Origin: Chitinophagales bacterium
GTDB taxonomy: Bacteria > Bacteroidota > Bacteroidia > Chitinophagales > UBA2359
Direction of reading: 5' to 3'
Assembly (NCBI GenBank): GCA_016787295.1
Contig: JAEUUX010000102.1
Coordinates: 1 to 44,509, forward strand
Length of the DNA stretch: 44,509 nt
A program made the position numbers and the translations under genes. Positions 36,592 through 40,248 of the stretch are shown here, in pieces. Each line of letters begins with the position of its first letter. The stretch's first letter is position 1. A model generated the notes under the pieces. The model did not search any database. It saw only the letters and a list, made by a program, of their open reading frames with translations, and was not told where the DNA came from.

Positions 36592-36988
36592 TTTGATAAC
36601 GACATTATTAGGTGGTATTTCTGAAAATAGCAACGATAAGAAAGTATTCAAATAAACCCTGAAAGGGTGATAGGTTTATAGCAAAATAACGAAACAAAAA
36701 AAGGCATAAACCCCGAAGGGGTGAAATGATGTCATGTTTTGTCGAATAATGTGTCACCCCATCGGGGTTTATGTTAATTATTCTATTGTTTCTGGGCTAT
36801 AAACGTGTCACCCCGTCGGGGTTTTTATTATTTTGAGCTGTTAAACTTGTCAGCTAATCGGTTTGTTTGGATAATAACAAATAAGGCCTTGATAAGGTCG
36901 TTATCAGATTGTCATTATCAAATATCAGGCATTTGTCATTTTTTTAGAACAACACAAGCTAAAACTACTTTTTAATGTCGTTATCAAA
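36592..36988. mobile_element. MITE-like element A with 16-bp terminal inverted repeats and four REP-like palindromes
   Basis: The ends TTTGATAACGACATTA (36592-36607) and its exact complement (36973-36988) form perfect 16-bp terminal inverted repeats around 397 bp of non-coding DNA. Inside are four ACCCY-NNN-RGGGT palindromes at 36656-36668, 36710-36722, 36756-36768 and 36810-36822; the first two carry TGA on the right (GGGTGAtagg, GGGGTGAAAT), the last two carry the complement TCA on the left, so the order is forward-forward-reverse-reverse. A degenerate internal copy TTGATAAGGTCGTTATCAG lies near 36890. No transposase is encoded; movement in trans is inferred. Confidence 0.65.
36637..36685 (+). 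repeat. 49-bp inverted repeat, left copy
   Basis: TAAGAAAGTATTCAAATAAA through GGTTTATAGCAAA is the exact reverse complement of 40157-40205. It contains the first palindrome of element A. Confidence 0.95.
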
Positions 36989-37023
36989 ATGTATGTTAAT
37001 TTAAACAAGAACAAGGCTTTGTT

Positions 37024-37872
37024 TTAGCGGTTCACTACAAATTTTTGTACTGAAGTTTCGCCTTTTTCGTTGGTCATTTGCAACCAATACATGCCATTAG
37101 CAAAATTACTTTCGTCCAAGTCAATGTTATAGGTGTTGTTGCCTGCTTGTTGGAAAGTGGTGGTTGCTTGTCCCACCATTGCTCCTGCCATGTTCAACAC
37201 ACGGAAGGTCAAGTGCTGACTGCTGGGCAATTGGTATTGCACTTTCACTTGGTTGGTAGCAGGATTGGGGTAGGTGGTCATGTCTATCCACGAACGATTT
37301 TGTTCCAAGCCCACATTTACGCCCGAAATCACGCGGGTAGCCGTATAGATAAGGTCAGACGATGCTTGGTCATTGTTGTTGGCGGCATTGCCAATCAGGT
37401 AGAAAGTGACGTTGCCTGCGTTGGTTGTTGGTGCTGTCCATTGGAAGTTGAAGGTATAGGAATTGGGCTGAATGGGTGCGTCCACGTGGTAGATATACTG
37501 ACGACCGCTCGAACTTCCTACGCCTGTGTGGTTAGCGCTACTGCCAATGAAAGTTCCCACACTTTGGTTACTGCTGTTGAGTGCCACTGCCTCAAAACCC
37601 CAACGTTGTGCGCCGGGCGAAGCCACTGTTATCGAGACAGGATAGGTCTGTCCGGGCGTGTAGGTGGTTGCTCCGCTGTTAAAAGACATTTGGATACTGC
37701 CTGTACCCGAATTGATAGTTCCTACATGACAACCACTAATGGCACAAGTGCTTTCGTTGGGCGCTCCTGTGCGTGCTTTGGGTGGCTGGTCGGAGTCGGA
37801 GTGCGAATAGGGAGCATTGAACCAAGACAAGCCCACAAAAAAAACAATAGCTAACAGAATAACTTTTTTCAT
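37024..37872 (-). CDS. Secreted choice-of-anchor V domain protein with T9SS type A signal
   Basis: A 282-aa exported protein from the ATG at 37872 (the frame to 37959 adds 29 residues ahead of the signal peptide KKVILLAIVFFVGLSWFNA). After the leader, GAPNESTCAISGCHVGTI is the conserved Cys/CH motif of choice-of-anchor V domains, followed by SGATTYTPGQTYPVSITV, QRWGFEAVALNSS and SYTFNFQWTAPTTNAGNVTFYLIGNAAN. The same domain forms the N-terminus of the sugar dehydrogenase at 26946-29288. The C-terminus is a T9SS type A sorting domain (YPNPATNQVKVQYQL, NGMYWLQMTNEKGE, KFVVNR). Surface location likely; biochemical role unknown. Confidence 0.88.
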   Translation of the reverse strand: MKKVILLAIVFFVGLSWFNAPYSHSDSDQPPKARTGAPNESTCAISGCHVGTINSGTGSIQMSFNSGATTYTPGQTYPVSITVASPGAQRWGFEAVALNSSNQSVGTFIGSSANHTGVGSSSGRQYIYHVDAPIQPNSYTFNFQWTAPTTNAGNVTFYLIGNAANNNDQASSDLIYTATRVISGVNVGLEQNRSWIDMTTYPNPATNQVKVQYQLPSSQHLTFRVLNMAGAMVGQATTTFQQAGNNTYNIDLDESNFANGMYWLQMTNEKGETSVQKFVVNR

Positions 37873-38033
37873 GTTGATAGGTTTTTTATAGATAGATTCA
37901 AAACAAACAAAAAATAGAACAAACGTTACTTTTCTACATAATGGTAAACGTTTAAACACGTCTTTTTGTTGTCTACATTGGATTTTTAAGGTTTAAAATT
38001 ATGGATAATAAAATTGTGTAGCGCTAACGAAAT

Positions 38034-39674
38034 TTACGGATTGGTTTGTTGTACCTCAATAGTTCCTACTGTTCCACTGCTCCATTGCACCGAGATTTGG
38101 TTGGTGCCTTGTCCCGACAGGATAGTACCACCTGTGACCTGCCACGTATAGCTTGTTCCCGCAATAGCAGGTATGCTATAAGTAGCCATATTGCCTGCAC
38201 ACACACTTTGCAAGCCACTAATGGCAATATTAGTTGGGATATTGGCAGGAAAAGCCGTGCAAATCTCCGATGCCACGCGTGCGCCTGTCTCCAATGCGCC
38301 ATGCACCGTTGAGGGATGATGATTGTTGGTAGCTTCGCCCGCAAAAAACAGTTTATTATTGATGGCTTGTGCCAAAAGCTCTCTTTTCGAAACGCCCGTT
38401 GGTGGTCCCGAATTGGGATAAGTCCCTTCGATGGGATACGAATAAGCCCCGCGAATATAGGGTTCGTTGCCCCAGTTCATAATGATGGCATCTGCAAAGT
38501 TGTTGGTTGCTGCATTGTTACCAAAAATACTATTTAGTTCTGCAAGTGCGATGTTAATGGCATTGTTGCCTTGTGCGCTCATATATTCGGCGCGTTCGCC
38601 CATGATGAAACAGTTCAGGACGTTGTTGGTAGCACCTGTTTTCAATTTGCCTGATGCCCAGCATTCGGTAGTATAGTTTTTGCACAACAAATCAAACATA
38701 CGGTTGCCATTCCAGAAAGTATTATTGAATTTGAGGGCTATTTTCATACCAGCACCCATCTCAAGTCCATTAATGGCAGCTACTTTGTTGGTAGGTAAAG
38801 CAGGCGTAAAACTAATATCTCCGTCTTGTAAGATGGGTAGGGGAACAGCCAACACTACTGCATTGCCTACATAGTTGTTACCGTTCTGGTCTGTAACCAC
38901 CACACCACTACCACTATAGTTAATGGCAGTAACGCGTTTGTTATACTGTATGTTGGGTAGAATATCGTTGAAATATAAGTTGTCCAAGATGTCTAAATAT
39001 GCGCCATCTAAAAGATAATCTTTGCCACCTGTAAGCCATAGATATTCTTGTGCGGCATAGCCTCGCATACTCAGACGGTTCAAGGAAGTACCATATTGTG
39101 TTCCTACATATGCTTCGTAGAAATGCCAAGTTCTATGTCCTGGACTAATGCCCCACACGGTATTGAGGTATTCTGCCACCGTGACATCGGGACCGTTGTA
39201 GTTCCATGCAGCGCCAATCAATTGCCAGACCTGCAAAATGTCGGGATCGTTGGTTTCGGAGTCCCACACTGCTGTGTTATCGATGGTGAGCAAAGCATCT
39301 TCGTCATTAGTTGGTTTCAGTAAGCTGGGATTAAGGGCATTAATATCATGGTATAAAAAAGATGGCGGATTGCCATTTTGATTACCCATGCCATGCACAT
39401 ATTCAGCACCTAATTCTAAAGGGAAATCGGCAAAATCGTTGGTATGTCGCACCCGTCCGCCATGTCTATCGGAGGCTTCCAAGATGGTAACAGTACCGCC
39501 CGCTTGGGCAATGCTATAGGCAGCATACAAACCCGCTGCCCCTGCTCCCACCACAATAAAATGTCCACAACATTGACTGTTGCTCGCCGAAGGACGCGAA
39601 AAAAGTTGTTGGGGATTCAACAAAGCCGCTGGAAACGAAGCCGCTAAATAACGTAGCAGTTGTCTTCTGTTCAT
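38034..39674 (-). CDS. Flavin monoamine oxidase family protein, Tat-like leader, PKD-like C-terminus
   Basis: A 546-aa protein. The N-terminus MNRRQLLRYLAASFPAAL has a twin-arginine-like leader. FIVVGAGAAGLYAAYSIAQAGG with TILEASDRHGGRV is the FAD-binding GxGxxG and its following motif; FPLELGAEYVHG, NIQYNKRVTAINYSGSG and the C-terminal RGAYSYPIEG ... LFFAGEATNNHHPSTVHGALETG complete an amine-oxidase fold (MAO/LSD1/polyamine oxidase type). After about residue 470 a PKD-like domain (GLQSVCAGNMATYSIPAIAG, GQGTNQISVQW) ends the protein at Q-T-N-P. It would oxidise an amine with O2 outside the cytoplasm. A -7-like TACTTTTG lies at 39723-39716 on the minus strand. Substrate unknown. Confidence 0.9.
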   Translation of the reverse strand: MNRRQLLRYLAASFPAALLNPQQLFSRPSASNSQCCGHFIVVGAGAAGLYAAYSIAQAGGTVTILEASDRHGGRVRHTNDFADFPLELGAEYVHGMGNQNGNPPSFLYHDINALNPSLLKPTNDEDALLTIDNTAVWDSETNDPDILQVWQLIGAAWNYNGPDVTVAEYLNTVWGISPGHRTWHFYEAYVGTQYGTSLNRLSMRGYAAQEYLWLTGGKDYLLDGAYLDILDNLYFNDILPNIQYNKRVTAINYSGSGVVVTDQNGNNYVGNAVVLAVPLPILQDGDISFTPALPTNKVAAINGLEMGAGMKIALKFNNTFWNGNRMFDLLCKNYTTECWASGKLKTGATNNVLNCFIMGERAEYMSAQGNNAINIALAELNSIFGNNAATNNFADAIIMNWGNEPYIRGAYSYPIEGTYPNSGPPTGVSKRELLAQAINNKLFFAGEATNNHHPSTVHGALETGARVASEICTAFPANIPTNIAISGLQSVCAGNMATYSIPAIAGTSYTWQVTGGTILSGQGTNQISVQWSSGTVGTIEVQQTNP

Positions 39675-39843: not shown

Positions 39844-39917
39844 GGGCTTGTAGCTCAGTCGGTTAGAGCAGCGGACTCATAATCCGTTGGTCCTAGGTTC
39901 GAGTCCTAGCGGGCCCA
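39844..39917 (+). tRNA. tRNA with CAT anticodon (Met or lysidine-type Ile2)
   Basis: A 74-nt cloverleaf: acceptor GGGCTTG pairs with CGGGCCC (two G-U pairs), D-arm TAGCTCAGTCGGTTAGAGCA, anticodon arm GCGGA-CTCATAA-TCCGT, T-arm CCTAG-GTTCGAG-CCTAG-type, discriminator A at 39917; CCA is not encoded. CAT can mean elongator Met or an Ile tRNA read after lysidine modification; the acceptor and variable region look slightly more like Ile2, but I cannot decide by eye. Confidence 0.95.
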
Positions 39918-39931
39918 CTTTATCTACCAAT

Positions 39932-39968
39932 ATAAGTGCTTCTTTGAAAGAGGCACTTATTTTTTTTG
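39932..39968 (+). terminator. Terminator of the tRNA gene
   Basis: A 14-bp stem with one wobble pair (39932-39945 with 39947-39960) followed by eight T's. Confidence 0.85.
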
Positions 39969-39977
39969 TCCAAACAC

Positions 39978-40248
39978 TTTGATAACGACATTAATAAAGC
40001 GTTATTTTTGTATTATCCAATAACCCCAACGGGGTGAAATGATTATAGAAAGCAATAACACAATTATTTAACACAAAACCCCAACGGGGTGAAATTAATT
40101 AACAGAACGCATAATATCACCCTTTCAGGGTTTTTTCGTATAATGATTACTGTCTGTTTGCTATAAACCTATCACCCTTTCAGGGTTTATTTGAATACTT
40201 TCTTAATCCTTTCTTTCTATCATGCCATTAAATAATGTCGTTATCAAA
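39978..40248. mobile_element. MITE-like element B with 16-bp terminal inverted repeats and four REP-like palindromes
   Basis: TTTGATAACGACATTA at 39978-39993 and its exact complement at 40233-40248 bound 271 bp without a gene. Four palindromes lie at 40023-40035, 40078-40090, 40119-40131 and 40174-40186: the first two end in GGGGTGAAAT, the last two begin TCACCC, giving the same forward-forward-reverse-reverse order as element A. Its right end copies the left end of element A in inverse orientation (20 bp at the tip plus the 49-bp repeat). It starts 9 bp after the tRNA terminator. One more near-copy of the terminal motif (15 of 16) lies outside at 40276-40291. Confidence 0.65.
40157..40205 (-). 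repeat. 49-bp inverted repeat, right copy
   Basis: The exact reverse complement of 36637-36685. It contains the fourth palindrome of element B. Confidence 0.95.

What the first reader, a model, noticed from the sequence alone, without database searches (positions are those of the whole stretch)
36592..40248. Two related MITE-like elements with 16-bp terminal inverted repeats, each carrying four REP-like palindromes in the same order
Seen directly: TTTGATAACGACATTA and its exact complement bound 36592-36988 and 39978-40248. Each interval is non-coding and holds four ACCCY-NNN-RGGGT palindromes ordered forward, forward, reverse, reverse (judged by the flanking TGA/TCA). This combines MITE-like ends with REPIN-like inner pairs, and I know of no named family that does so. 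The two copies are inverted to each other and flank a choice-of-anchor V gene, an amine oxidase gene and a tRNA.
Basis: partly seen in the sequence, partly recalled or inferred. Interest (0 to 1): 0.8.

Follow-up and report, generated by a model that had tools for sequence, protein, structure and literature searches.

The report
Orphan MITEs carrying paired palindromes
The two repeats are members of a family of short, gene-less jumping DNA elements in one uncultured Bacteroidota genome; they carry inside them a palindromic repeat that is itself scattered widely in that genome, an unusual but not unprecedented combination.

Summary
The 16-mer occurs 56 times in the own genome (reversed control 0). 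Of 37 close neighbour pairs, 29 face inward. 26 of 34 paired copies carry the same flanking triplet on both sides, 25 of them ANT. Uninterrupted paralogous sites exist for several insertions. So this is a MITE family with a 15-bp inverted repeat TTGATAACGACATTA and ANT target duplication. The second window copy probably ends at 40290, not 40248. Each full copy holds an inverted pair of a two-palindrome unit (two ACCCYNNNRGGGTGA palindromes in direct order, about 54 bp apart). That unit also occurs alone: 482 palindromes, 188 strict pairs; 56 of the 100 listed pairs have no MITE end nearby. The 'REPIN-like' label fails: pairs are direct, and no Y1/RAYT transposase was found. No transposase with matching ends was found among five families searched. 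ANT points to an IS5-type enzyme (literature, inference). Neither repeat was seen in 59 sampled relatives. New variant of a known kind; closest published precedent found: the repeat-carrying MITE BrickBuilt of Porphyromonas gingivalis.

The parts
36590..36592 (.). left target duplication AAT of copy 1
   Evidence: identical triplet on both sides
36593..36987 (+). MITE copy 1 (canonical full-length form)
   Evidence: TIRs, ANT duplication, aligns with 13 other full-length copies
36593..36607 (+). left 15-bp terminal inverted repeat, copy 1
36656..36668 (+). palindrome A of copy 1 (followed by GATAGGTTTATAG)
36710..36722 (+). palindrome B of copy 1
36756..36768 (-). palindrome B' of copy 1
36810..36822 (-). 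palindrome A' of copy 1
36893..36922 (-). two overlapping subterminal TIR-like repeats (2 and 3 mismatches); 18 of 34 paired copies have such a repeat within 120 bp of an end
36973..36987 (-). right terminal inverted repeat, copy 1
36988..36990 (.). right target duplication AAT of copy 1
39976..39978 (.). left target duplication ACT of copy 2
39979..40290 (-).
   Evidence: ACT/ACT duplication with this right end
39979..39993 (+). left terminal inverted repeat, copy 2
40023..40035 (+). palindrome, copy 2
40078..40090 (+). palindrome, copy 2
40119..40131 (-). palindrome, copy 2
40174..40186 (-). palindrome, copy 2
40233..40248 (-). exact 16-mer copy inside, or alternative end of, copy 2
   Evidence: flanks do not match as a duplication
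40276..40290 (-). probable right terminal inverted repeat of copy 2 (1 mismatch)
40291..40293 (.). right target duplication ACT of copy 2

Best explanation
A family of non-autonomous DNA transposons (MITEs). A DDE transposase acting in trans recognises the 15-bp ends (perhaps with the TIR-like subterminal repeats) and inserts the element at A-N-T, duplicating the three bases. SHOWN by sequence: ends, duplication, empty sites, copy number, lack of long ORFs. INFERRED: the enzyme, most likely of the IS5 type because of the ANT duplication; it is lost from, or missing in, this assembly, or belongs to a family I did not search. The cargo is an inverted pair (A-B, B'-A') of a two-palindrome unit that is also dispersed on its own in the same genome. 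The simplest history is that a MITE captured the repeat (or a pair of copies) and spread it further; the reverse (loss of the ends) is not excluded. No function for the host is shown. By a simple ORF rule none of 34 paired copies lies inside an open frame of 130 codons or more; as long inverted repeats they could fold when single-stranded and affect nearby mRNA (inference).
For: 56 exact 16-mers in 5.42 Mb, 0 in the reversed control; 178 with up to 2 mismatches against 17 in the control. Neighbours within 620 bp among sites with at most 1 mismatch in the held sequence: 29 inward, 1 outward, 7 same direction. 26 of 34 paired copies have identical flanking triplets (25 ANT, one GTT); a match of the middle base alone would reach 26 with P = 5.8e-9 under base composition; A at -2 in 101 of 104 ends. 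Empty sites (five chosen copies): the C258 copy sits in another dispersed repeat at AAT, and 13 spanning alignments show that site without an insert (5 with AAT itself); C102 copy, 8 spanning alignments, all AAT; C163 TIR-bounded element (different interior), 9, of which 7 AAT; C174 copy, 1 (AGT); C29 copy, 2, nested in the arm of another TIR element. 14 full-length copies are 74-95% identical to each other. Palindrome pairs outside MITEs: 56 of the 100 listed. ANT as the duplication of bacterial IS5 transposons: PMC4482050, passages.
Against: No transposase gene with these ends was found: Y1_Tnp, DDE_Tnp_4, DDE_Tnp_1_2 and rve gave 0 hits; 6 DDE_Tnp_1 loci (ISAs1, IS4, IS1634, IS701 and two below cut-off by NCBIfam) have no match to the 14-mer TTGATAACGACATT with fewer than 3 mismatches within the fetched flanks. 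Other transposase families were not searched. 8 of 34 pairs do not share the triplet. IS5 elements in the paper passages I saw have other end sequences (GAGAC..., ACGTC...; PMC4596501). Several contigs end inside the elements, so multi-copy elements may be missing from the assembly.
Confidence: 0.78

Rival explanations
1. The palindrome doublets are the real mobile unit (a REP-like population), and the 16-mer ends are a later or accidental border.
For: Of the 100 listed doublets 56 have no TIR nearby; doublets keep about 54 bp spacing despite diverged middles and occur without TIRs as A-B and as A-B-B'-A'. The innermost palindrome pair covaries: 118 of 127 Watson-Crick, T-A 80, C-G 38 (copies are related, so not independent).
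Against: No convincing empty site for a TIR-less unit in the about 230 kb held (69 joined-flank queries, 58 spanning alignments, judged by eye as mostly arrays, AT-rich repeats or low identity). No Y1 transposase. The TIR elements do have empty sites exactly at the 15-mer and ANT.
Confidence: 0.12
2. REPIN/BIME-type REP cluster mobilised by a RAYT.
For: Many palindromes in pairs with hairpin potential.
Against: No Y1_Tnp in the genome while 5 of 14 control genomes ring; pairs are direct, not inverted; no GTAG or CGTC within 6 bp on either side of 291 palindromes, and one GACG, the complement of CGTC.
Confidence: 0.03
3. Structured regulatory RNAs or bidirectional terminators copied by duplication, not transposons.
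For: Very stable folds as DNA: z -7.9 and -4.2.
Against: ANT duplication and empty sites; only 2 of 101 predicted pairs show a compensatory change; besides the tRNA no Rfam family reaches its gathering score in the window; of 21 copies with both neighbours called 7 lie between convergent genes.
Confidence: 0.04
4. Chance repeats or assembly artefact.
For: Draft of 296 contigs; several contigs end inside copies.
Against: Copies differ (74-95% identity) and lie in different places with matching duplications.
Confidence: 0.01

Closest known systems
BrickBuilt and MITE464/PgRS of Porphyromonas gingivalis (PMC4596501, passages read)
   Same: Bacteroidota MITEs with short inverted repeats, intergenic, carrying an internal repeat that the MITE appears to have trapped and spread; some copies lack one or both flanking segments
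   Different: Internal repeat is a 23- or 41-nt tandem minisatellite, not an inverted pair of palindrome doublets; ends match IS5-family elements present in that genome; its duplications are described as perhaps not canonical TSDs
IS5-family (ISL2-type) insertion sequences and their MITEs
   Same: 3-bp ANT duplication (PMC4482050 passages say ANT is consistent with bacterial IS5; the ISL2 assignment is recalled)
   Different: No IS5 transposase found here; end sequence not that of the IS5 elements seen in the passages
REPINs / REP doublets (PMC3116915, abstract and passages)
   Same: Abundant palindromes in pairs of fixed spacing, with hairpin potential
   Different: REPIN doublets are inverted (93% in that study) and tied to RAYTs; here doublets are direct and no RAYT was found
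MITECca01 of Cardinium (PMC9769881, section 4 read)
   Same: Lineage-restricted, high-copy, mostly intergenic Bacteroidota MITE of a few hundred bp
   Different: Parent IS982 element present; palindromes mentioned only for its inverted repeats
IS elements targeting REPs, e.g. ISRm22 of the IS4 family (PMC1525189, passages)
   Same: An IS4-family element here also lands in the palindromes
   Different: That concerns a visitor of the palindromes, not the MITE itself

Membership tests
MITE | short, no coding capacity | tested here: met
   paired copies of 210-530 bp; no ORF of 90 aa or more in the two window copies
MITE | terminal inverted repeats | tested here: met
   29 inward against 1 outward and 7 same-direction neighbour pairs
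MITE | target site duplication of fixed length | tested here: met
   identical triplet in 26 of 34, 25 of them ANT
MITE | dispersed copies and empty sites | tested here: met
MITE | autonomous parent with the same ends | tested here: inconclusive
   five transposase families searched, none with matching ends; not all families were searched and the assembly is a draft, so absence is not proven
IS5 family derivative | ANT 3-bp duplication | tested here: met
   family rule from PMC4482050 passages and recall
IS5 family derivative | cognate IS5 transposase | tested here: not met
   PF13359 and PF13586 absent; the six PF01609 hits are named as other families or fall below cut-offs. Not filed as IS5
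REPIN / REP | RAYT (Y1 transposase) in the genome | tested here: not met
   0 hits; rings in 5 of 14 control genomes
REPIN / REP | two REPs in inverted order as the basic unit | tested here: not met
   188 strict direct doublets
REPIN / REP | GTAG or CGTC tag beside the palindrome | tested here: not met
   0 of 291 palindromes in held sequence with GTAG or CGTC within 6 bp on either side; 1 with GACG; family rule from PMC3733652 abstract and passages
BrickBuilt-type repeat-carrying MITE | tandem minisatellite inside, IS5-like GAGAC ends | tested here: not met
   inner repeat is an inverted pair of palindrome doublets; ends TTGATAACGAC

The most novel reading that the evidence does not exclude
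Two tiers of mobility in one element: the direct palindrome doublet (A, about 54 bp, B; conserved tail GTTTATAG after A) is an independently spreading, RAYT-free REP-like family with its own enzyme, and the ANT-type MITE has captured an inverted pair of it, so that two different enzymes amplify the same repeat, while an IS4 element uses its palindromes as landing sites.
Probability: 0.25. Interest if true: 0.62.

Novelty: new variant of a known kind. Interest (0 to 1): 0.42.

Why it matters
REP-like palindromes are normally explained by RAYTs. Here several hundred copies are found in a genome with no detectable Y1 transposase, and part of them ride inside a MITE with clean ANT duplications. 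This gives a concrete, testable route by which extragenic palindromes can spread without a RAYT. It also adds a Bacteroidota example of repeat capture by MITEs, and an apparent case of an IS using such palindromes as targets.

Tried and rejected
RAYT/REPIN reading: rejected on enzyme, orientation and tag. Composite transposon made of the two window copies: outer flanks differ (AAT against ACT), rejected. Autonomous partner among the six DDE_Tnp_1 loci: no matching ends. Autonomous partner at 28 lone, partial or odd TIR sites: up to 330 bp printed for each showed, by eye, MITE remnants, other repeats or the IS4 element; apart from the ORF listing of L042 they were not searched for genes. Intervals between palindrome units on C2, C20 and C71: host genes by my own reading of the translations on C2 and C20 (DnaG-, sugar-dehydratase-, MiaA-, RluD-like; no family search run), only short repetitive ORFs on C71; no transposase recognised. 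Structured RNA: apart from the tRNA only matches below the gathering scores, little covariation. Viral contigs: 48 contigs hold the 16-mer once each; taken as chance because none is paired, but the chance expectation was not computed and I did not look into them. Phage and plasmid collections: no match. Empty sites of TIR-less doublets: 69 joined-flank queries, 58 spanning alignments, none a clean empty site by eye.

One search failed on a file name and was repeated. Part of the output was cut by the tool; the junctions that I report were re-run for five chosen copies. Two further copies with a spanning alignment in the visible part (C46:7564, C70:47352) were not examined, and the cut part may hold more.
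Full report
OBSERVATION. Both window elements are as described. The 16-mer matches (up to 3 mismatches) and the palindromes (up to 1) exceed shuffle expectation (9 against 0.95 and 11 against 2.3; 0 of 100 shuffles as high in each). No ORF of 90 aa or more overlaps them. The only RNA-family match above its gathering score in the window is the tRNA.

GENOME-WIDE TEST. The window is contig 34 of a 5.42-Mb, 296-contig genome. The 16-mer occurs 56 times, reversed control 0, and 178 times with up to two mismatches, control 17. 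In the sequence that I held (230.5 kb with the window), 104 sites with at most one mismatch gave 37 neighbour pairs within 620 bp: 29 inward, 1 outward, 7 in the same direction. Inward lengths: 6 of 210-230 bp, 1 of 271, 7 of 315-345, 14 of 380-408, 1 of 518. The held sequence was fetched because of these hits, so the counts are not a random sample of the genome; the orientation was not selected.

TARGET DUPLICATION. Lining up the flanks shows A-N-[TTTGATAAC...GTTATCAAA]-N-T with the same N, i.e. a 3-bp duplication ANT around TTGATAACGACATTA...TAATGTCGTTATCAA. The base at -2 is A in 101 of 104 ends. The triplets agree in 26 of 34 paired copies, 25 as ANT and one (C62) as GTT. If only the middle base had to agree and were drawn by composition, 26 or more of 34 would have P = 5.8e-9. 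Pairs were chosen by mismatch and distance, not by the duplication. The eight disagreeing pairs are C67:49377, C70:47352, C83, C84, C98, C119:10318, C145:4155 and C147:2478. Some of these regions hold more than one possible end, so the pairing may be wrong there.

EMPTY SITES. Joined flanks of five chosen copies were aligned to other places in the held sequence. The C258 copy lies in a larger dispersed repeat (a piece of which is at window 1-111) at AAT; 13 alignments run across the site without an insert, 5 of them with AAT, the others with AAC (5), AAA (2) or AGC (1). The C102 copy: 8 alignments, all AAT; one of the eight is a nearby copy in the same contig stretch. The C163 TIR-bounded element, whose interior is different and holds no palindrome of this pattern: 9 alignments, 7 AAT, one AGT, one AAC. 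The C174 copy: one alignment (AGT). The C29 copy: two alignments (ATT, ACT) to the arms of other TIR elements, i.e. a nested insertion. This is direct sequence evidence of past insertion with one triplet duplicated.

ANATOMY. Fourteen copies of 380-419 bp align over their length, 74-95% identical to each other. Typical order: TIR, about 64 bp, palindrome A (followed by GAYANGTTTATAG), about 54 bp, palindrome B, about 44 bp, B', about 54 bp, A', an arm, TIR. TIR-like subterminal repeats (up to 3 mismatches, within 120 bp of an end) are present in 18 of 34 paired copies. Seven short forms (210-230 bp) were read by eye: six hold one doublet (in some with a degenerate palindrome) and remains of a third palindrome, and the C5 copy only degenerate remains. 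Folded as single-stranded DNA the two window copies are far more stable than shuffles (z -7.9 and -4.2), as expected of inverted repeats; only 2 of 101 predicted pairs show a compensatory change and the covariation term is unfavourable (+1.81), so selection for the fold is not shown.

THE INNER REPEAT. ACCCYNNNRGGGTGA occurs 482 times (control 3). Strict direct doublets number 188 (control 0). Palindromes with the TTTATAG tail number 188 as well (control 0). Of the first 100 doublets listed, 31 lie between two TIRs (up to 3 mismatches, within 420 bp), 13 beside one, 56 beside none; 19 of the 100 lie near a contig or locus end. Of 54 doublets with a TIR nearby and enough downstream sequence, 50 have a recognisable A' downstream (score 16 or more of 22; 40 of them at the usual 65-74 bp; upstream control 0; shuffles reached 16 in 4); of 54 without a TIR, 22 do (14 at 65-74 bp; upstream 15, because many stand in arrays). 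The innermost base pair of the palindrome covaries: T-A 80, C-G 38, T-G 6, others 3, of 127. So the doublet is a repeat in its own right. Whether it moves on its own is open: no clean empty site was found for TIR-less units.

GENE CONTEXT. By a simple ORF rule (130 codons or more, stop to stop) none of 34 paired copies lies inside an open frame. Of 21 with both neighbours called, 7 are convergent, 10 co-directional, 4 divergent.

ENZYME. No hit to Y1_Tnp, DDE_Tnp_4, DDE_Tnp_1_2 or rve; control genomes ring in 5, 1, 5 and 6 of 14. Six DDE_Tnp_1 loci are named by NCBIfam as ISAs1, IS4, IS1634 and IS701 above cut-off, and two have only matches below cut-off (best IS701_3 and NF041680). None has ends like the MITE within the fetched flanks. 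ANT duplications are described as consistent with bacterial IS5 transposons (PMC4482050, passages); the ISL2 subgroup label is recalled. I therefore infer an IS5-type enzyme, lost or not assembled, and do not file the element as IS5.

DISTRIBUTION. The 16-mer and the tailed palindrome were found in the own genome and in 0 of 59 relatives (19 of the same family, 40 of the same order). GTDB 220 contigs: 0 paired long-form matches, with own-like records possibly withheld. A tailed-palindrome pattern is in 0 viral contigs, while the bare 16-mer is in 48, once each. Copy 1 has no match in phage or plasmid records. The nearest named relatives by the window's NAD synthetase-like protein (my naming) are Bacteroidetes bacterium UBA2322 (72%), then mostly Saprospiraceae MAGs (65-70%) with Chitinophagales MAGs among them, so the host is probably an uncultured Saprospiraceae-like Bacteroidota; this placement rests on one protein.

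COMPARISON WITH THE LITERATURE. Papers were read only as stated: PMC4596501, PMC4482050, PMC3116915, PMC3733652, PMC1525189, PMC3196728 and PMC12730594 as passages; PMC9769881 section 4 and passages; others as search listings. The closest precedent is BrickBuilt. My statement that no named family has this architecture rests in an open-access library only.

VERDICT. A real, once mobile (possibly still mobile) orphan MITE family with an unusual cargo; a new variant of a known kind. The part worth following is how several hundred palindromes, many in direct doublets, spread in a genome without a detectable RAYT.

Noticed in passing
L079 = own genome C31:1-1703; junction loci L242-L255: An IS4-family insertion sequence (ends CAATGTCATTAAGTTAG) lands in the same palindromes: of 14 ends found, 13 have a visible flank, and 8 of these abut ACCCYNNNRGG(G) (C28, C30, C39, C108, C119, C145, C194, C201); 5 do not match that pattern (C8, C31, C157, C285, C296), some of them looser palindromes by eye.
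   Followed up: partly
window 1-182; also C2, C67, C70, C71, C102, C119, C145, C174, C182, C201, C258: A second, larger dispersed repeat (family contains GCCTCAACGATTGCCTA) that serves as a landing place for the MITE at C258 and C102.
   Followed up: partly
window 29461-29598: Copy of another dispersed repeat: the flank of the C41 MITE copy matches it at 93% and matches C2, C46, C71, C83, C163, C174 and C182 at 86-94%.
   Followed up: no
window 36159-36375: 42-bp tandem array (5.2 copies) a little upstream of MITE copy 1; TIR sites at C50, C67, C170, C174 and C188 also lie next to short tandem arrays, by eye.
   Followed up: no
own genome C163:4647-5164: 518-bp element with the same ends and AAT/AAT duplication but an unrelated interior without these palindromes, so the ends can carry other cargo.
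   Followed up: partly
own genome C67:27865-28740: 859-bp TIR-bounded copy with a piece of the second dispersed repeat inside, abutting another TIR with one ANT-like triplet between them.
   Followed up: partly
own genome C20 (L070 966-1356, 2435-2840), C104, C106: Tandem or local arrays of palindrome doublets without MITE ends.
   Followed up: no
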